Below, in pieces: positions 1,035 through 9,260 of a stretch of DNA of 10,000 bases. The notes beneath the pieces are model-generated. The model did not search any database. It saw only the letters and a list, made by a program, of their open reading frames with translations, and had not been told where the DNA came from. Source of the stretch: Acropora yongei (taxonomy: Eukaryota > Cnidaria > Anthozoa > Scleractinia > Acroporidae). Each line of letters opens with the position of its first letter. Within the stretch, counting starts at the first letter, position 1. The position numbers were made by a program, and so were the translations under genes. The stretch covers positions 142,249-152,248 of the forward strand of contig BLFN01000004.1 of the NCBI GenBank assembly GCA_014634225.1, written 5' to 3'.

Positions 1035-1728
1035 CAGTTTGTGGTCACTTCTCACCAAGGCAGGTTGTCCAAAGGTGTAATGGTACAACATCTCTAGAGA
1101 GAACACCACTACTGCCACCAATTCTTTTTCTATTTGTGCACATCTTGTCTCAGTATTGGTCAAGGCACAGCTAGCACAAGCAATCTGCTTTCCACTTCGT
1201 AGTAGAGCAGACTTTTTTGGCAGGCATCACACTGGATCATGAGTTCTGCTTTGTGGTCATAATAAGTAAGAATATCATCTGTAGTGTTAGTGGGGCCATA
1301 TGCTGGGATGTTATCTGCTCCTTCCAAGCATTCTAGAGCTCAGTTTCTGCCTTTCTGGAAAATCTCAGATGATACCTGTAAGCCAAACTGCACAAGTAAT
1401 ATTTTCTGAATAGTATTGGAAATGTGATCAGCATGGTGGGCTCATTGTGTAATATTTGGTGCTTTTATCTGAATGCAATTCTGTGTTGGAGAAAAACTTT
1501 GCCTCCTCGTCCAGGACAGGTGTCTGGTATGTTTCCCTCTTAAAGCACCCTATTTCGTGGTCTTGGATCAATGCATTCTCTCAGAGCACCTGACTTCTTG
1601 GTGGGAACTGCTTAAGTGCTAAGGTAAGGGGTTGGCAAGTATTCTACGATCAACATAACTGGTCAGCTCATCTTTCAATTTGTTTTCAGTGCTTTAGGGA
1701 CTCTGCATGTTGGGGTGATCATAGGTTT
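1035..1728 (-). pseudogene. pol: element 2 (Ty3/gypsy) RT and RNase H remnant
   Basis: This is the RT and RNase H part of a decayed Ty3/gypsy polyprotein, read across several frames. In order on the minus strand: PMITPTCRVPKALK (about 1725-1685), LKDELTSYVDRRILA (about 1680-1635), KKSGALRECIDPRPRN (about 1600-1550), SSEIFQK (near 1365), LECLEGADNI (about 1340-1310), ILTYYDHKAELMIQCDA (about 1270-1220), then TNTETRCAQIEKELVAVV and HYTFGQPALVRSDHK down to 1035. The RNase H acidic residues in QCDA, IEKE and SDH are visible. RT is internally deleted: an Asp pair follows GADNIPAYGPTNTT, but much of the palm, the thumb and the connection region are missing. Frames break several times, and no integrase follows. 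The protein features are diagnostic for Ty3/gypsy pol. The linker that should precede this RT lies at 7467-7949, beyond two nested insertions. Confidence 0.85.
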
Positions 1729-1760
1729 GTTTTATTTATTTTATTTTTTTTATTTTATTA
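1729..1760 (-). repeat. A-rich 3' tail of LINE-1
   Basis: On the minus strand this is a (TAAAA/TAAA)n tract that abuts element 2 sequence at 1728. It is the expected 3' end of a target-primed LINE insertion and marks the 3' junction. No clear target-site duplication was found between this end and the 5' end near 7466. Confidence 0.7.
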
Positions 1761-2135
1761 GCCTTGTGTTAAATACTGAAACACTTAACGAAATAAATAA
1801 TAAATAAAGAAATAAATTGAGTGAGGCTGGAACCCGCAACGGCATAAGCCAATTACTCCGGGACCAGGGTATCCTAAAAGGCTAAAAAACACTTGAGTAC
1901 ATAAACATAACTAAAAGGGAGAAAGAAACACCCAGAAGCAGCAAGTAAGATTTGCATTTAAGTGGCCTGCGGTGTTGCCTGACAGACAAATGGTCTTCCA
2001 GGTTCATGGGTCTTCTGTTCAGTTAGGACTGCTGAAAAGTGGGAGTTTTGCATATGCACACCTGGTAATGAACAGATGCTGGATTGCTGCTTGACCTAGT
2101 ATGGCGCACGTTGCGAATGGGAGGCATTATGGATG

Positions 2136-2139
2136 GATT
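2136..2139. repeat. target-site duplication, left copy (GATT)
   Basis: GATT lies directly before the TG of the left LTR and recurs directly after the CA of the right LTR at 7123-7126. Four bp is within the Ty3/gypsy range. Both copies sit inside LINE-1, and the LINE-1 frame is continuous if one copy is dropped. Confidence 0.85.
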
Positions 2140-2282
2140 TGTAATAAGCGGCAGCCTGTTATAGAATGTGGAACAAACAAACTAACATTTTAATCACTAT
2201 CAAGATGGTGGCTTGGCCAAAACATGAGGTACAATTGAAAAGCACTATGGGTAACCTTGTGCATGACGCATGACTGGTAACA
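2140..2282 (-). repeat. 3' LTR of element 1
   Basis: This 143-bp repeat starts TGTAATAAGCGG and ends GGTAACA on the plus strand, giving TG...CA ends on both strands. It matches 6980-7122 with no indels and nine substitutions (seven transitions, two transversions), about 94% identity. It is the 3' LTR because the coding strand is minus. At least three of the differences are CpG to TpG/CpA changes in this copy. Confidence 0.95.
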
Positions 2283-2561
2283 TGCATTCATTTCTTTGTT
2301 TTTTTGTTTTAAATCACATCCTTTCTAATCAAAAGAACAACAACAAGAGCAATAACTAAGACAAAAAAACAAAGTAACATCATTGTCTGAGACAGTGCCA
2401 AATGGACGGTCCAGTTCACACTAAAATAAAAACGTGTCATGAGTTGCCAGTGTCGGCATCATGTGCGGTCACATGCATCAGTTCCATAGTTGGCGTTCTT
2501 TCTGTACTTACAGGAGTGGATAGTGCTCGCCACCTGCAATGGAAGGTCGTATAATCAATTA
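2283..2561 (-). other. element 1 3' untranslated region with weak polypurine tract
   Basis: No reading frame is supported here. Next to the 3' LTR the minus strand is A-rich and purine-rich (AAAGAAATGAATGCA and an AAAACAAAAAAACAAAG stretch, about 2283-2310). That is where the plus-strand primer of an LTR element should lie, but it is interrupted by C and T, so it is only a weak polypurine tract. Further A-rich sequence lies at 2320-2375 on the plus strand. There is no env-like coding. Confidence 0.4.
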
Positions 2562-4062
2562 TCAGTCAGAGAAGTGGGCAGGTTTTCGAACCACTTGGCC
2601 ACTAGGGTAACGATTGGGGGTTTGTGAAGACAGGGTGGTGTTGGGGTGTCAGGGGCTGATTGGGGCTGATTCAAAGTTGAGCTGGAAACTGTTGACGGCA
2701 GAGGAGATGGATCGACATCATCGGGTGCTGCTGTGGGAGTGGCAGATGAAGCAAATGATGAAGTAGGGTTTGGAGAATAGGATTGCAGTTTGTCAGGAAG
2801 ATTTGGAGGGGGAGAGGAGTTGGTGTCTGTCTCAGGTAGTGGTTCAACATTGTTTAAGGGAGGTGCCAGTTGCACTTCAACATGGTTTCGTCTGATTTGT
2901 CTGGTGCCAGTTTTGAAGTAGTAGGATCGATGGCCAGCAGAGCCTATGATCTTTCCAGGGACCCAGGCCTTTGACCGTGAATTGGGGGAAGGCTTAGCAA
3001 AGACATAGCTACTAGGTGGGAAGTTGGGAAGAAGATGCCTTGCATGTTTATCATAAGCTTGCTTTTGTTGTAGTTTACAGTGTAAGTGGTTGGATACCAC
3101 TATGTCATGAGGAGAATGGCAAGGCTCCAAAGTAGTTATTGGTTGAGGTAAATTGCTGCGGAGAACACGGTAAAACAATCTTTGAGCAGGAGAGAATGTG
3201 TGACCAGCTGGTGGAGTGTTACCTACTGAAAGGAGTGCCAGGTCAACATCTTTAGCTGTGCGAAGGATGTTTTGACTGACTTTACAGCCGCTTCAGCTCG
3301 TCCATTGGATTGTGACCAGGAAGGAGATGATGTGATGTGGTTGAACTTGTATGTTTTGGCAAATTCCTTGAATAAATCAGAGGTGTATTGAGATCCATTA
3401 TCTGTTAATAAGGTGTGTGGGATTCCGTGATGGCCAAAATGCTGCTTAGGTGCCTGTACTACAGCAGATGACTGGATGGAGGGAAGGTGATCGATTTCAC
3501 TGAAGTGGTCAACGGTGACCAAATAAGCAGCACCATTAAGTTCAAATAAGTCTTGCGATACCAGGTGCCACGGTAAGGTAGGCACAGGGTATGGTTGAAG
3601 GGGTTCACGAGGGTGCTGTTGCCTGTATTGAGCACAGATAGCGCAGGTTTTACGCAAGTCTGTAACCTGGCTGTTTATCCCTGGCCAGAAGACACATCTA
3701 CGGGCGTGTCGAATGGTGATCTCAGGACCACGATGAGCAGCATGTAGCTTGTGGAGGATAGTGGGACGAGATGAGGAGGGAACAATGACACGCCCCTGTT
3801 TAGACAGGAGCCCATCATGTGAAGTTAGTTCGTGACGAAAAGTCCAGTATGGGCGTGCTAGTTCAGAGACTGCTGCCTTGTCATTGAGCCAACCGGCTTC
3901 AACAAGATATCGCAAAGTTCTCTGTTCAGGGTCAGTGAGGGCAGCAACTCTTATCTCCTGTAGTGTTGCATCTTGAAAACCAGAGAGGTCAGGGTGTTCA
4001 GCTTCAAGTTCTACACAATAAACCAGCTCATCCTGAATTTGCTTGTGTGAGGTGATGGGTAG
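2562..4062 (-). pseudogene. int: element 1 integrase
   Basis: Integrase inserts the retrotransposon cDNA into the host genome. The N-terminal zinc-binding part shows HKLHAAHRG (His at about 3744 and 3735) and CAIC (3645-3634). The catalytic core keeps D in SQDLF (3550-3552), D in LTDNGSQ (3400-3402) and E in GRAEAA (3292-3294). Exactly 35 residues separate the second Asp and the Glu, the canonical D,D-35-E spacing. A frameshift falls at an A4 run near 3270; the next frame continues through HTFSPAQRLF and a GPY/F-like module (WVPGKIIG...RSYYF...QIRRNHVEV) into a Pro/Ser-rich tail. A second frameshift near 2590, in a C-rich run, separates the tail from its likely true end (SGQVVRKPAHFSD, stop at 2562-2564). 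The active site is intact but the reading frame is not. Confidence 0.9.
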
Positions 4063-4133
4063 AGGAGCCCGAGAGACAGTTTCAGCAATGTGGAGTGTTG
4101 ACCCCTTGCGGTATTTAACTGTGAATGCGTAGC

Positions 4134-4155
4134 ACTGAAGAGTAACTGAAGAGTA
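4134..4155. repeat. 11-bp tandem duplication in RNase H
   Basis: ACTGAAGAGTA occurs twice in a row (4134-4144 and 4145-4155). The copy nearer integrase lies in the resumed RNase H frame; the other is at the edge of the unrelated insert. It may be a repair product at the insertion edge. Confidence 0.8.
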
Positions 4156-4156
4156 A

Positions 4157-4328
4157 CCCTTGGCTCAACTCTGCGGCTGTGCTTGTATATAGTCAACTGG
4201 TTTGCCTCCTGCCAGTTGGGATTCTTAACCAGTTAAGTTTGTGTCAAAGTGGAGTGCCTGTGAGCAAGCTTGACAGCTAAGTGCACTTCCGCTATTAATA
4301 AAGAATTTGGATTTTGATTTTAGATTTG
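4157..4328 (+). mobile_element. probable short retroposon (SINE-like) inside RNase H
   Basis: About 170 bp interrupts RNase H between minus-strand LQS and LQCYAF. On the plus strand it ends with an AATAAA (4297-4302) followed by a simple T/G-rich tail, ATTTGGATTTTGATTTTAGATTTG, the kind of tail left by a LINE-mobilised short element. Near its start are small inverted pieces, CAACTGG...CCAGTTG and CAACTGGTT...AACCAGTT (about 4194-4236). I see no confident A and B box and no target duplication, so a truncated LINE end or another insert is possible. It carries an in-frame TGA (4165-4167) relative to integrase. Confidence 0.5.
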
Positions 4329-4650
4329 GATGCTTTGGAGACATCGAGGTGCGTCAGCAAGAGGACATTTAAAAATTATCTCTAAAGGTTTGTGGTCAAC
4401 GTGAACTACCACATCAGCCTTGCTGAAGAGGAATTGGTCAAACTTGTGGAATGTATGAACGATAGCCAGTCTCTTTTTTCAGTCTGGGCATATCTTTGTT
4501 CTGTTGGGCTGAGGAAGCTTGAGCTGTAGGCTACAGGTTGCCACAAGATGTCAGTGGAGTTGGCTGAATGGGTAGCTGGTTGTCGCAATGCGGCACCAAG
4601 GCCGCATTCAGACGCATCAACCACTGGGGCGTTGACATCAAAATAGCGAA

Positions 4651-5545
4651 GGCAAAGTGTTTGCGATAGTAGTTCCTTTTCTTGTCGGAAAGCTTCAGTG
4701 TGTTGGTCAGCCCACAGAAACTCCTGATTCAGATGGGTGAGGTCCTGAAGAGGACGAACTACCTCACTAAGGTGAGGGCGGAACTTTGACAGATAGGTGA
4801 TAGTGCCCAGGAAACACGGTGTAGCTGCTTTGTCATGAGGTCGAGGCATACTTAGGACTGCATTGGCAATCTCGGAGCTTGGTTTTAGGCCTTCAGGCGT
4901 AAGGATGAGTCCCATGAAGGGTGCAGTGCAAGTTTTAAACTTGATTTTGTCTGAGTCCCTGCAGCAAGAGACAATCCATGAGTTCTATTACAGTGCGGTC
5001 ATGATCATGTGTTGCCTCAGACAGAGTTTTACCCCGACCAACCACTATGATGTCATCAGCTATGTTAATGGCACCTTCCAGACCACAGAGGACATCGTGA
5101 ATGTGACACTGAAACTCCTCAGGGGCTGAACTAATAACAAAGGGAAGAGGGTGTATGCATGGTAGTCAAGAGGGAAGACTCCTCTGTTAGCTTGATTGTT
5201 TGAAAGGTGTCTTTGATGTCAAAGGTTGAGAAGATCTTCGCTTGACGAAAGTGATGTAGATTTGCTTTCAAAGTAGTGATGGGGTAAACGGGCCTGAGTA
5301 TTGCTTTGTTGACTGTCTGGGAAGGATCTAAGCAGATACAAACTTTAGTAGCCTTTGTTGTGGTTGCTGGTCGTTCGCGTACTACCGTGTTTGATATCCA
5401 CGGGGTTGGGTGCATTCACTCGGATCAGTTGGCCCGTGTGGATGAGTTTGGCTAGGGCATCTTTGATAGTGGGTCGCTTTGGAGCAGCATAGCAGTGTGG
5501 AGCAGCTTGGATGGGCCTGATGGTGGGATCCACGGTTAGTTCACC
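4651..5545 (-). pseudogene. RT: element 1 reverse transcriptase
   Basis: RT copies the element RNA to DNA. It starts near LTVDPTIRPIQAAPH (5539). A frameshift in a C-rich run near 5405 moves the frame; then come WISNTVVRERP, VCICLDPSQTVNKA (5340-5300) and FSTFDIKDTFQ, with the first catalytic Asp at 5218-5220. Near 5150 a short deletion removes residues between the TTMHTP and LPFVISSAPEEF motifs and shifts the frame. The catalytic box is NIADDIIVVG with the Asp pair at 5052-5057; Ala in place of the Tyr position is a natural variant in some gypsy lineages. A further shift near 4980 leads to DKIKFKTCTAPFMGLILTP and TITYLSKFRPHLSEV, the thumb and connection region. The three catalytic Asp residues survive, but four frame segments are needed. 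Confidence 0.88.
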
Positions 5546-5639
5546 CAGCCCCTCAAATAAATGTGAATAGTTACGTTTAATTGATTCAAGTGTCAACTCA
5601 CCGAGAGGTGGCGGAGAGGCTGTAGAAAAGGCCTGAAGT

Positions 5640-5958
5640 TGATTGACAGCGTCAAAGTCATAATTTAAGATGCCCATGTGAGTACTATCAGCCAAGCCCA
5701 GGAGAGGTGCATAGTTCTCTGCGGTTATGATTTGGACTACCACGTCATAAGGCTTGCCTCGGGGAGTGCAACAGTGTGGCTTGACCTCCAGTTGGAATGA
5801 TGGTTTTGGAGTAGTCAAGGAGGCGAACACTGGAAAGTGTCTACAAAGATGCCTCTGGATGCAGACTGAACTTGGGCTACATGATGAGTTGTGACATAAG
5901 CGCATCTGGGTTCAAAATCAGTGTCGACTGCTTGGGTCACTGTGTTGGCAGTGGATGC
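5640..5958 (-). pseudogene. PR: element 1 protease, active site deleted
   Basis: The retropepsin should cut the Gag-Pol polyprotein. What is seen is the start, IFVDTF (about 5850), in the gag frame, and the C-terminal half in another frame: SFQLEVKPH, GKPYDVVVQIITAENYAP and PLLGLADSTHMGILNYD (LLG at 5696-5704). No DTG or DSG triad appears in any frame between the zinc knuckle and LLG. About 87 codons separate these landmarks, shorter than I would expect for this lineage. The simplest reading is an internal deletion that removed the catalytic loop and joined two frames. The linker after LLG leads into RT. Confidence 0.7.
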
Positions 5959-6790
5959 TCAGCAAACTTGTTGCCAGTGACCCTGTTTACCACAGCGGTG
6001 ACAGGTGTCATTGGCGGCAGGACAATCACAACGGGCTGCATGTGGTGTTCATCCGCACCCGAAGCAGCCAAGGGCGCCTTGTGGTTTGGAGGAACGCCGG
6101 GGGGTTTTGGATTTGACTGCATTGGGTGTCACTTTGTATGCTGTATCCTCACCGGCTGTAACCTGGTATACTGATTCTTCAAGTTGTCTGGTAATAGCAG
6201 ATTCAGTGTTGAGGCTAACCTCAAAGTCATGAGCCTTACTGATTACTTGGGCAAAAGTTAGAGTGGTCAGGTTCTCCCGAGAAGTGAGGTTGCTTCTGAA
6301 GGATTTAAAGGTGTCATTGAGGCCAATTAGAAAAATGTCTCTCTGCAGCCTGTCGTCCACTGCTGATGGGAAATTGCATTTCTGATACTCTAGTCTCACT
6401 GACGTGTGCCACTGTTGAATGGTCGTCCCTGGATCTTGTTTTAAAAGACGAAGAAAATTGTGAGTGGACTGTATGACAGGCTCCTCTCTGAGATAGTGGC
6501 TGGAAAGTTGAGCCAGCCATCTGGCAGGATGTTGCTCTTCCTTATCGATGATTTGTGAGTCGATGGTTGTGGTTAGGAAATCCCATTTTAGCTTGAGGGA
6601 AAGCTCGTCGAAGAGCTGCCATGGCCTTAGGTTGTTTCGCAGATATCCAATAATCGTCGCTGTCGATATCCTTAGCAGGATTCACATAGTCCTCCATGAT
6701 GCAGAAGTCTCTAAAATTAGTGAGGAAAAACTTGAATGCCCTATGGCAGTCTTCCGAGTCGTCATCGAAGACTGGTGGATCTTTGCCCAT
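5959..6790 (-). pseudogene. gag: element 1 gag: capsid and zinc knuckles
   Basis: Gag builds the virus-like particle and binds the element RNA. The likely start is the ATG at 6790 (MGKDPPVFDDDSED), about 190 bp below the 5' LTR. Capsid-like sequence continues as DIDSDDYWISAKQPKAMAAL, then the frame changes at an A4 run (plus 6586-6589). The following frame holds HPARWLAQLSSHYLREE, QQWHTSVRLEYQKCNFP and LQRDIFLIGLND. A C-terminal nucleocapsid has two Cys-rich units. The first (CFGCG...) is cut by TGA at 6049-6051. The second, CHRCGKQGHWQQVC, is a perfect CX2CX4HX4C knuckle, followed directly by another TGA at 5959-5961. Both stops could be CGA to TGA changes at CpG. Confidence 0.88.
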
Positions 6791-6962
6791 GATGTCTGAG
6801 AGAGAGACTAGTAGTGAGCCAATTTTGTTACGTGCAAAGTTGAATTGACTAGTTGATTGATGAGAGGTGACAAGGGTCGATCGCTGAGTTTATGGTGTTG
6901 AGAATAAAGTTCGGGCAAAGTCACTGAAGAACGAGCAGGTTCAGTAGATGAAGACTCGGGTT
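6791..6962 (-). other. element 1 5' leader
   Basis: This untranslated stretch lies between the primer-binding site and the likely gag start. A 70-codon minus frame running from the LTR through the primer-binding site to about 6808 has no gag-like sequence and is not believed to be translated. Confidence 0.6.
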
Positions 6963-6979
6963 CCAAACTTCTGACACCA
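6963..6979 (-). promoter_or_regulatory. primer-binding site, tRNA-Leu-like
   Basis: Directly after the 5' LTR the minus strand reads TGGTGTCAGAAGTTTGG. TGG is the complement of the tRNA CCA end, and its position touching the LTR is diagnostic. The next bases TGTCAG fit a discriminator A plus the GTCAG-type acceptor stem of metazoan tRNA-Leu. The tRNA identity is from memory and should be treated as likely rather than certain. Confidence 0.75.
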
Positions 6980-7122
6980 TGTAATAAGCGGCAGCTTGTT
7001 ATAGAATGTGGAATAAACAAACTAACATTTTAGTCACTATCAAGATGGCGGCTTGGCCAAAACATGAGGTACAATTGAGAAGCACTATGTGTAACCTAGT
7101 GCGTGACGCGTGACTGGTAACA
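6980..7122 (-). repeat. 5' LTR of element 1
   Basis: This 143-bp partner of 2140-2282 has TG...CA ends. It is the 5' LTR because gag lies just below it on the minus strand. It should hold the element's promoter. A TCTATAACAAG stretch on the minus strand could be a TATA-like element. It keeps three CpGs that have decayed in the other LTR. Confidence 0.95.
7041..7052 (-). promoter_or_regulatory. YY1-like motif in the 5' LTR
   Basis: The minus strand reads GCCGCCATCTTG, a match to the classic animal YY1 site (core CCAT in a GCCGCCATNTTG context). In the 3' LTR the same site is GCCACCATCTTG, one change at the CpG. Function is inferred only. Confidence 0.4.
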
Positions 7123-7126
7123 GATT
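7123..7126. repeat. target-site duplication, right copy (GATT)
   Basis: This GATT directly follows the CA of the right LTR and is identical to 2136-2139. It is AATC in LINE-1's coding sense. Confidence 0.85.
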
Positions 7127-7466
7127 TATCTTAACAAATTTGTTCACTAACTTGTAGAAGTACGCTATGTCTAGATATTGGTGCCAGTAGCTCAAGGGGA
7201 GCATGTTGAGCCTAACTAATCTTTCCTGATACGACACGTTGCATCTAAAAGGTAGACTTAAGATAAACTTTATAGCTTGGCGCTGTACTCATTCTACCTG
7301 TCTCATCAGTTCTTTAGATTGTGGCGCCCACACCTGTATTGCATAGCCGAGGTGAGGGCGCACAAGAGCAAGGTAGATGCATCTTCTAATCCTAGAATTT
7401 TAGATGGTTCTAGTGTTCCTCCAGGCAAATCCGACTAATTTGTTTGCCTTGGAGCAAGCCTCTGCC
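7127..7466 (-). pseudogene. LINE-1 5' half: RT C-terminal region
   Basis: This is the upstream half of a 5'-truncated LINE. Minus-strand motifs in order: AEACSKANKLVGFAWRNTR, a TAA, RRCIYLALVRPHLGYAIQV, WAPQSKELMRQVE, a TGA (7289-7291, probably a CGA to TGA change), VQRQAIKFILSLPFRC, NMLPLSYWHQYLDIAYF and KLVNKFVKI. This is the familiar region after the RT catalytic core of CR1/L2/jockey-like ORF2 proteins. Apart from the two stops it stays in one frame, and it continues in frame at 2139 as NPSIMPP. The LINE boundary near 7466 is where element 2 sequence (...FEIRSTV) ends. Confidence 0.85.
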
Positions 7467-7949
7467 AACAGTGCTTCTGATTTCAAAACATACTTCCCCA
7501 GGTAGTGTTCAAATGTGACAGTTGAATACATTAGTACTGTTGAATGAGCTCTTCAGCAGTCAGTTGTTTAGCCTGAGGTTTGCGAACTTGGATGTCGGAG
7601 AGGACCTTAGGAAGTTTTCATTATGAACTGAGATTAATTCCATCTTATGTACTGCTCTCACACTGATCAGCAAATTCTATGGGGTATTTCTTTCAAGTCT
7701 GGGGTTGTACAAGAGGATTCTAGTTGTCCTGATAGGCTGTGTTTGAGATCCATTCCACATGCGTTGTGTTTTTGTGCTCATATGCAGTTTGTGACCAGTT
7801 GTGGGAGGTTCAGGGATAATGTTGACTGACATGCCACAGTGAATGTGAATGTTGAGCTTTCTAACATTGATAAGCAAATAAGCGTAATTTGCAGATTGGA
7901 CGGCATGGATTTCACAGTAATGTCTGCCAGAAGCTCAGTTGCTTTTTTG
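7467..7949 (-). pseudogene. PR: element 2 (Ty3/gypsy) nucleocapsid end, protease and linker
   Basis: Minus-strand order: a damaged zinc-knuckle-like KSN*ASGRHYC (about 7930-7900); HAVQSANYAYLLINVRK; the protease site IHCGMSVNIIPE (about 7835-7800); TTGHKLHMSTKTQRMWNG; ILLYNPRLERN; then VRAVHKMELISVHNENF. A frameshift follows, then VLSDIQVRKPQAKQLTAEEL, a stop and another shift, then TLPGEVCFEIRSTV ending at 7467. IHCG occupies the place of the catalytic Asp loop (D[TSC]GASVN), so His replaces the essential Asp. The linker text is what normally precedes gypsy RT, and the matching RT begins at 1728. The protein is inactive, with stops and frameshifts throughout. Confidence 0.8.
7834..7870. repeat. 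direct repeat, copy in the protease region
   Basis: CCACAGTGAATG(TGAATG)TTGAGCTTTCTAACATTGA here matches CCACAGTTAATGTTGAACTTTCTAACATTTA at 8098-8128 except for a 6-bp insertion and a few substitutions. In element 2 terms it encodes NVRKLNI.CG. The pair brackets the misplaced RNase H piece. Confidence 0.7.
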
Positions 7950-8076
7950 AACATCTTTAGAGAGAACATGCATCACTACTGCCACCAATTCTTTTTCTAT
8001 TTGTGCATATCTTGTCTCGGTATTGGTCAAGGCACGGCAAGCACAAGCGATCTGCTTTCCACTTCGTAGTAGAGCA
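7950..8076 (-). pseudogene. misplaced second copy of element 2 RNase H
   Basis: This 127-bp piece reads ALTNTETRYAQIEKELVAVV on the minus strand and matches 1086-1208 at roughly 93% identity with a 4-bp insertion. In a normal element RNase H follows RT; here it sits upstream of nucleocapsid and protease, fused to it in one frame. It ends abruptly at both sides, so it is either a rearranged copy of this element or a scrap of another copy of the same family. Confidence 0.8.
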
Positions 8077-8097
8077 AAAATCTTAAATCACTTGAAA

Positions 8098-8128
8098 CCA
8101 CAGTTAATGTTGAACTTTCTAACATTTA
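8098..8128. repeat. direct repeat, outer copy
   Basis: This is the partner of 7834-7870. It lies between the misplaced RNase H piece and the 5' edge of LINE-2. Confidence 0.7.
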
Positions 8129-8129
8129 G

Positions 8130-8990
8130 GACTGATTAACTGCTAATAAGCCATCTTTAAACATCAAGAAATCTAGTTTTGTTTTCTTCTGGCCTAGATA
8201 GACAGAAGAGACTAAATTATGAAGTCAACTTGAAAGTGAACTTGAAAGTATTTGATCATTATACCAACACACATATCATTTCCTTAGAACGTAAGAGTCA
8301 TGGAAATATCATATTGTCCACTTATCTTCAAAAAGAAGTAAAACAATTTGCTTTGTTGCTAGATGAAGACATTTCCTACCCTTAGCTACTTTATATTGCA
8401 TATACATCTTACGTACCCAGCCTTATCTATTGTATGGTATAGTTGCGTGGGGCCAAGCTGCCAAGACTCGGTGAATCAAATTTCTTATTCTCCAAAAATG
8501 TGCCCTCTGCCTGATGCACTTTGGTGACACAAATCTCTTGCTGTACCCTACTTTCTTTCTTCTGGTGTTCTTCCTCTTGATTTTCTGAACTTTAAGTCAG
8601 TTGCTGTTCTGATGCATGACATATCTAACAACATATTGTCTGCTAATATTTGCAATTTATTTCTAAGAAAGCATTCATTCACATAACAAAATGTTATATT
8701 CAAGAGGTGACTATTTTGTTAAACCCTCAAGACTTGACAAAAAAATTAAATTACCTTCAAGGTAGGGTGTAAAAATTTTGAATAGTTTACCTTGTGAAAT
8801 CTGTCATTTATCCAAAAACAATTTAAAAAATTAAAATCCACAATATACTCCATTGATTCTCAGAAGAAAATTACTTAATTTATTTGTCTTAATTAAAAAA
8901 ATATGGTGATACTTTAGTAGCTTCTCATATTTTGTATTTTGTACTGATTTGATTCTATCTGATATTTACTTATTTGACTGCATACTTTGT
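8130..8990 (+). pseudogene. LINE-2: non-LTR retrotransposon RT C-terminal remnant
   Basis: A second LINE, opposite in orientation to everything to its left. Plus-strand motifs in order, spread over several frames: TANKPSLNIKKSSFVFF (about 8138-8188), KRLNYEVNLKVNLKVFDHYT (8200s), SLERKSH, LLLDEDIS (about 8356-8380), a probable internal deletion, then LTYPALSIVW, AWGQAAKTR, ILQKCALCLMHFGD, RGDYFVKPSRLDKK (about 8704-8748) and GVKILNSLPCEI (about 8766-8801). This order fits the end of the RT domain and the C-terminus of CR1/L2/jockey-type ORF2. Stops and frameshifts are frequent. The element is 5'-truncated at about 8130; its 3' end is uncertain and may run to the (GAATTT)n tail near 9275. Confidence 0.75.
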
Positions 8991-9220: not shown

Positions 9221-9260
9221 ATTCTCATACACGCATATAATCATATACGTATATGAGAAT
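9221..9260. repeat. 40-bp imperfect palindrome
   Basis: ATTCTCATA (9221-9229) pairs with TATGAGAAT (9252-9260), with further partial pairing inside (ACGCATATAA...CATATACGT). It abuts the (GAATTT)n tract. Confidence 0.8.

What the first reader, a model, noticed from the sequence alone, without database searches (positions are those of the whole stretch)
1035..8076. Three-layer nest: LTR element inside LINE inside older Ty3/gypsy element
The LINE reading frame stops at 7127 (KFVKI) and resumes at 2139 (NPSIMPP) with no base missing once element 1 and one GATT are removed. Likewise element 2's linker ends ...FEIRSTV at 7467, and its RT starts KPMITPTCRVP at 1728, in the order expected of one gypsy polyprotein. 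This fixes the relative ages: element 2 oldest, then LINE-1, then element 1.
Basis: seen in the sequence. Interest (0 to 1): 0.75.

Follow-up and report, generated by a model that had tools for sequence, protein, structure and literature searches.

The report
Four-layer nest of decayed retrotransposons
In what looks like a coral or other cnidarian genome, jumping elements landed inside one another like Russian dolls, and the layers show which arrived first; this is an ordinary kind of genomic fossil, neatly documented here.

Summary
A second LINE copy in the same genome (L003) runs straight through the point where element 1 sits and has one GATT where the window has two. Of 42 LINE proteins that match both LINE pieces, 19 place them with zero gap and 39 within 5 residues. 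Around the LINE, element 2's linker end falls exactly before its RT start in relatives: that site ranks 1, 8, 2, 1 and 6 among 408-886 windows in the 5 relatives used.

Amendments. (1) A fourth layer: a 5'-truncated, tRNA-derived SINE (about 4158-4320, + strand) lies inside element 1. (2) The LINE is 5'-truncated near 7467, lacks about 125 bp near 2016 and shows no target-site duplication. (3) Element 2 is only a pol fragment without visible LTRs or integrase; its RT seems to lack about 350 nt, and an extra 91%-identical RNase H piece lies upstream of its protease, so "one gypsy polyprotein" is only partly right.

The relative ages follow from containment; divergence does not contradict them. 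Nested retrotransposons are well known, so interest is low.

The parts
7467..7949 (-). Element 2 (oldest layer), upstream piece: degenerate protease region and protease-RT linker, ending ...FEIRSTV at 7467
   Evidence: The site exactly before the RT start ranks 1, 8, 2, 1, 6 among 408-886 windows in 5 relatives. No Pfam hit for the piece, no protein relative; one search reports no DNA match outside the window.
1037..1728 (-). Element 2, downstream piece: start of RT (KPMITPTCRVP), rest of a damaged RT with apparently about 350 nt missing, RNase H
   Evidence: RT_RNaseH 35.8 bits, cutoff 24.8; ordered matches to relatives, some weak (L026: E 0.003 and 0.62), with 363 nt between them in L026 against 9 nt here; one search reports no DNA match outside the window.
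7950..8076 (-). Second copy of the RNase H piece, out of order (upstream of the protease)
   Evidence: 91% identical to 1087-1209 over 127 columns; RT_RNaseH 25.5 bits, cutoff 24.8.
8078..8151 (-). Weak second copy of the protease stretch (matches 7817-7883)
   Evidence: Local alignment score 55 against a maximum of 46 in 200 shuffles.
7127..7466 (-). LINE, 5' piece (C-terminal part of the RT protein, ends ...KFVKI); 5'-truncated relative to L003
   Evidence: 89% identical to L003, whose frame goes on upstream; 111 of 120 LINE proteins match this piece at E up to 10. Base 7467 could belong to either side.
1729..2139 (-). LINE, 3' piece (starts NPSIMPP), with an A-rich 3' end at about 1729-1765 and about 125 bp missing near 2016
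   Evidence: 86-88% identical to L003 in two stretches, between which L003 has about 125 bp more.
2136..2139 (.). Target-site copy GATT, left side of element 1
   Evidence: Single copy in L003 at the same LINE position.
7123..7126 (.). Target-site copy GATT, right side of element 1
   Evidence: Single copy in L003. The next base is T on both sides, so 4 or 5 bp; 4 bp if the LTR is TG...CA.
2140..7122 (-). Element 1: Ty3/gypsy LTR element with broken frames
   Evidence: 143-nt LTRs; a CCHC motif at about 5962-6003 seen in translation (the gag-side frame 6049-6681 has no Pfam hit); RT, RNase H and integrase in gypsy order.
2140..2282 (-). Element 1, 3' LTR
   Evidence: 94% identical to the other LTR.
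6980..7122 (-). Element 1, 5' LTR; the stretch just inside it (minus strand, from 6979) lies where a primer-binding site is expected
   Evidence: the primer tRNA was not tested.
3223..4146 (-). Element 1 integrase region
   Evidence: Integrase_H2C2 44.3 bits, cutoff 25.5; rve 30.0, below its cutoff of 32.6; best protein relative 98% identical.
4323..4984 (-). Element 1 RNase H region and the end of its RT
   Evidence: RT_RNaseH_2 47.3 bits, cutoff 29.8.
4158..4320 (+). Fourth layer: 5'-truncated SINE copy inside element 1
   Evidence: Splits RNase H from integrase; 16 of 21 spanning proteins abut at one residue; 39 scored places outside the window (40 with it; 63 candidates); fuller copies extend upstream into a tRNA-Ser-like head.

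Best explanation
A series of independent retrotransposon insertions in a cnidarian-like genome. A Ty3/gypsy element (element 2) decayed. A 5'-truncated LINE was reverse-transcribed into the codon boundary between its protease-RT linker and its RT (inferred: target-primed reverse transcription at a TT/AAA site, with no visible target duplication). A second Ty3/gypsy element (element 1) was integrated into the LINE by its integrase, duplicating GATT. A 5'-truncated tRNA-derived SINE landed in element 1. Shown: the four units, their containment, both junctions, and the GATT duplication with a single-copy counterpart. Inferred: the enzymology of each insertion, and that all were separate events over time.
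For: Uninterrupted LINE paralogue with one GATT. Protein relatives keep the two LINE pieces adjacent: zero gap in 19 of 42, within 5 residues in 39 of 42. Element 2: the 14 codons before the LINE, scored apart, rank 1, 8, 2, 1 and 6 of 555, 852, 605, 886 and 408 windows at exactly the place just before the best match of the 14 codons after it, in 5 relatives. LTR pair. SINE: 16 of 21 spanning proteins abut, repeat family, tRNA-Ser call in L048, 1 of 8 loci scanned.
Against: No target duplication is visible for the LINE or the SINE. Element 2 has no visible LTRs or defined ends, so its own insertion is inferred from coding remains only. The RNase H piece lies on both sides of the nest, and its copies differ by K 0.051, no more than the LTRs of element 1 (K 0.066), which a simple 'oldest layer' story does not explain. 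With 11 codons the element 2 test gave ranks 1, 21, 474, 1 and 13; the 474 (L031) arises where two downstream sites tied. With 14 codons the overall best upstream site lay elsewhere in 3 of 5 relatives. Three of 42 LINE proteins gave gaps of -7, -186 and -189.
Confidence: 0.94

Rival explanations
1. The 'element 2' pieces are remains of two or more copies of the same gypsy family lying in tandem, each with large deletions, rather than one element.
For: An RNase H piece and a weak protease piece both recur upstream of the protease. The order along the minus strand is protease', RNase H', protease, linker, LINE, RT, RNase H.
Against: The two repeated pieces differ unequally: RNase H copies 91% alike, protease copies much less, with gaps, so one tandem duplication does not fit well. 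A local 127-bp duplication needs fewer steps. It does not touch the LINE-in-element-2 junction.
Confidence: 0.3
2. Assembly artefact: the nest is a misjoin of separate repeat copies.
For: Repeats are where assemblies misjoin; no reads can be inspected here.
Against: Both GATT copies, the exact codon boundaries at both junctions and the single-copy counterpart in L003 are what real insertions leave. The contig is 1.86 Mb.
Confidence: 0.02
3. The LINE pieces are two independent truncated LINE insertions that happen to flank element 1.
For: LINE fragments are common (recalled) and no target duplication marks the LINE.
Against: The two pieces meet at the same codon in L003 and with zero gap in 19 of 42 proteins, with GATT on both sides.
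Confidence: 0.01

Closest known systems
Ty3/gypsy LTR retrotransposons (Metaviridae), cnidarian copies such as proteins named K02A2.6-like in Acropora and Actinia (listing)
   Same: Element 1: LTRs, CCHC motif, RT-RNase H-integrase order, integrase domain; the ten best protein relatives are 66-98% identical over the integrase frame. Element 2: RT and RNase H pieces.
   Different: Both are decayed. Element 1 carries a SINE; element 2 has no visible LTRs or integrase and carries a rearranged RNase H piece.
LINE of the wide CR1/jockey kind (clade not determined; the group name is recalled)
   Same: RVT_1 in the longer paralogue, 5' truncation, A-rich 3' end.
   Different: Endonuclease not examined; no target duplication seen.
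tRNA-derived SINEs
   Same: tRNA-Ser nt upstream of the shared body in one fuller copy, shared body, short A/T-rich tail, dispersed copies.
   Different: The window copy lacks the head.
Nested LTR retrotransposons as surveyed in plants (PMC6911290 and PMC7251063; outline and abstract seen)
   Same: Younger element inside older ones; the order of insertion can be read from containment.
   Different: Here LTR, LINE and SINE kinds are mixed, in a cnidarian-like genome.

Membership tests
Ty3/gypsy, element 1 | Pair of LTRs, TG...CA, with short target duplication | tested here: met
   143-nt LTRs, 9 of 143 differences; GATT on both sides and once in L003.
Ty3/gypsy, element 1 | Order RT - RNase H - integrase | tested here: met
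   Along the minus strand: RT matches 5385-4944, end of RT and RNase H 4984-4323, integrase 4146-3223. RVT_1 itself scores 23.8, below its cutoff of 29.6.
Ty3/gypsy, element 1 | tRNA primer-binding site next to the 5' LTR | tested here: inconclusive
   A candidate stretch starts directly at 6979; no tRNA was matched.
Ty3/gypsy, element 2 | Protease-RT-RNase H of gypsy type in order | tested here: inconclusive
   Linker and RT start side by side as in relatives, RNase H after RT, but a second RNase H piece precedes the protease; the protease has no Pfam hit.
Ty3/gypsy, element 2 | LTRs, integrase | tested here: not met
   Self-comparison of the 18 kb C3:140000-158000 shows no further direct-repeat pair at E 1e-4 besides the element 1 LTRs and the RNase H copies; all 24 matches outside element 1 of the 120 proteins (kin of element 1) are in RNase H. 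It is therefore called a gypsy pol fragment, not an element.
LINE | LINE-type reverse transcriptase | tested here: met
   L003 extension hits RVT_1 at 61.5 bits, cutoff 29.6; the window piece matches 111 of 120 such proteins but has no Pfam hit by itself.
LINE | A-rich or simple-repeat 3' end and 5' truncation | tested here: met
   Tail at about 1729-1765; L003 frame continues beyond window 7467.
LINE | Target-site duplication | tested here: not met
   None visible at 7467/1728 by eye; LINEs can insert without one (recalled).
tRNA-derived SINE | tRNA-like head with pol III boxes | tested here: inconclusive
   The window copy lacks it; ARAGORN calls tRNA-Ser 26 nt upstream of the shared body in L048, 1 of 8 loci scanned.
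tRNA-derived SINE | Dispersed short repeat without coding capacity | tested here: met
   39 scored places outside the window, of 63 candidates (40 scored in all).

The most novel reading that the evidence does not exclude
The RNase H piece on the far side of the nest was copied there, across the insertions, by repair synthesis, or kept alike by gene conversion, at about the time element 1 arrived: its two copies differ no more (K 0.051) than the LTRs of element 1 (K 0.066), although they lie in the oldest layer.
Probability: 0.2. Interest if true: 0.3.

Novelty: new member of a known kind. Interest (0 to 1): 0.17.

Why it matters
It is a clean, self-ordering stack of four insertions of three kinds in one locus and gives a relative order for one LINE, two gypsy copies and one SINE copy in this genome. 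It changes no general picture: nesting of this kind is common and long known.

Tried and rejected
Element 2's protease-linker piece found no relative in the protein database (11 candidates, none at E 0.001 or better) and no reported DNA match outside the window (the tool scores only its best candidates and skips very common words), so the test was moved to relatives found with the RNase H protein (16 matches, 2 of them the window's own). Of the 10 stretches then fetched, 5 were used (L026, L027, L031, L033, L034). Of the other 5, L029, L030 and L032 read N over the linker; L028 and L035 were not translated there and not used.

Rfam on the window gave 0 matches at gathering scores and ARAGORN 0 tRNAs. 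The Rfam match in L041 is far below its gathering score and was set aside. The CTGAAGAGTAA doublet at 4135-4156 was considered as a SINE target duplication and rejected because both copies lie on the same side. Orthologous empty sites could not be sought. Literature: four searches (1 paper; 10 listed of 16; none; 8 listed of 517) listed no paper whose title or abstract start concerns this locus; beyond listings only the outlines and abstracts of PMC7251063 and PMC6911290 were seen.

Full report
What was checked. The window is G000:C3:142249-152248 of a 405-Mb genome in 365 contigs. Of the few protein relatives whose listing names an organism, 5 of 8 for element 1 are cnidarian (Acropora twice, Actinostola, Paramuricea, Actinia; the other three are a fish, a mosquito and a prawn) and 3 of 3 for the LINE (Paramuricea). 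The host is probably a cnidarian, perhaps a coral; this is inference. I tested contiguity without deleting anything, by placing the pieces apart on uninterrupted relatives.

Element 1 in the LINE. The repeats 2140-2282 and 6980-7122 are 143 nt and 94% identical, begin TG and end CA on the minus strand, and differ at 9 of 143 positions (7 transitions, 2 transversions, K2P 0.066). GATT stands on both outer sides (2136-2139, 7123-7126). A second copy of the LINE, L003 on contig C318, matches window 7123-7467 (89%) and 2015-2140 (88%), and the two matches meet in L003 at 2943-2947 with a single GATT. This is a paralogous uninterrupted site. As a further test, the 120 listed LINE proteins (of 1043 found with an L003 stretch that ends before the junction) were compared with the two pieces separately, at E up to 10: 111 match the first piece, 43 the second, 42 both. 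The implied gap is 0 residues in 19, 1 in 8, and within 5 in 39 of 42; three (-7, -186, -189) disagree.

The LINE in element 2. L003 continues as LINE reading frame upstream of the point where the window's copy stops, so the window copy is 5'-truncated at about 7467. Its 3' end is A-rich (about 1729-1765). It also lacks about 125 bp that L003 has as open frame near window 2016. Relatives of element 2 outside the window were found only by protein (16 matches, 2 of them the window's own, best outside match 50%). Ten stretches upstream of RNase H matches were fetched and 5 used. The 14 codons ending at 7467 and the 14 starting at 1728 were scored apart: the window directly before the best downstream site ranks 1 of 555 (L026), 8 of 852 (L027), 2 of 605 (L031), 1 of 886 (L034) and 6 of 408 (L033) for the upstream piece. 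In L027, L031 and L033 another place scored higher for the upstream piece. With 11 codons the ranks were 1, 21, 474, 1 and 13; the 474 arises because two downstream sites of L031 tied. L026 and L034 look close to each other, so the five are not independent. The LINE thus sits between two codons (GTT and AAA) of the linker-RT boundary. No target duplication is visible. A nick at TT/AAA with blunt resolution is the simplest reading, as inference.

A fourth layer. Protein relatives of element 1 show that about 176 nt between 4146 and 4323 do not belong: 21 of 120 proteins have matches on both sides and in 16 of these the two matches abut at the same residue. The extra DNA is a dispersed repeat: 40 places were scored of 63 candidates, one of them the window itself; 28 of the other 39 start at query 54-63 (window 4153-4162), where the window's copy begins. 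Eleven copies were examined: they share up to about 100 bp more upstream in pairwise matches, L047 only in parts and L050 at an offset. In L048 ARAGORN calls a tRNA-Ser there (1 of 8 loci scanned), 26 nt upstream of the shared body. It is therefore taken as a 5'-truncated tRNA-derived SINE, + strand, about 4158-4320. Its divergence from 6 other copies is K 0.10-0.15, which dates the family rather than this insertion.

Element 2 is not a plain polyprotein. No LTR pair or integrase of its own was seen in C3:140000-158000 (the proteins used are kin of element 1, so sensitivity is limited). In its RT, window codons up to 144 and from 148 of one frame correspond to L026 up to 2088 and from 2452 (E 0.003 and 0.62, so weak), a loss of about 350 nt. 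A 127-column RNase H piece (7950-8076) lies upstream of the protease, 91% identical to 1087-1209, and a weak protease repeat lies upstream of that. Searches of the genome with either side report the other as the only further DNA match. The RNase H copies differ by K 0.051 (s.e. about 0.02; 6 of 123 positions plus 4 gap columns), similar to the element 1 LTRs, 0.066 (s.e. about 0.02), and less than LINE against L003, 0.11-0.15. So the duplication is a local event, possibly late, within an otherwise old fossil; gene conversion would also keep the copies alike.

Ages. Containment gives the order element 2, LINE, element 1, SINE. The divergences do not contradict it but rest on too few bases for dates. 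LTR divergence is a weak clock: the abstract of PMC7251063 (plants) reports that about a quarter of nested elements had more diverged LTRs than their hosts.

Low copy. A query of the 5' LTR plus 80 nt has one match outside the window, a lone LTR-like piece 87% alike over 108 nt (L038); the LINE piece has one. The tool calls such counts lower bounds.

Verdict. The structure is richer (four layers) and element 2 messier than described. The kind of thing is well known.

Noticed in passing
window 1087-1209 and 7950-8076: A 127-column RNase H piece, 91% identical, sits on both sides of the nest; its copies are as alike as the LTRs of the youngest LTR element.
   Followed up: partly
window 2015-2017 against L003 3068-3191: The window LINE lacks about 125 bp that L003 keeps as open reading frame; probably an internal deletion.
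   Followed up: partly
window about 8200-8600, + strand: Two LINE-protein matches at E 0.01 or better fall here on the + strand, so a further LINE remnant may flank the nest.
   Followed up: no
window 4135-4156: CTGAAGAGTAA occurs twice in tandem just before the SINE body; not a flanking target duplication, origin unknown.
   Followed up: no
window 9221-9260: A 40-nt palindrome (85% self-complementary) followed by a TTGAATTTGAATTTGG tail-like stretch.
   Followed up: no
L038 (G000:C337): Lone, diverged copy of element 1's LTR with no other match to the window in its 2.4 kb.
   Followed up: partly
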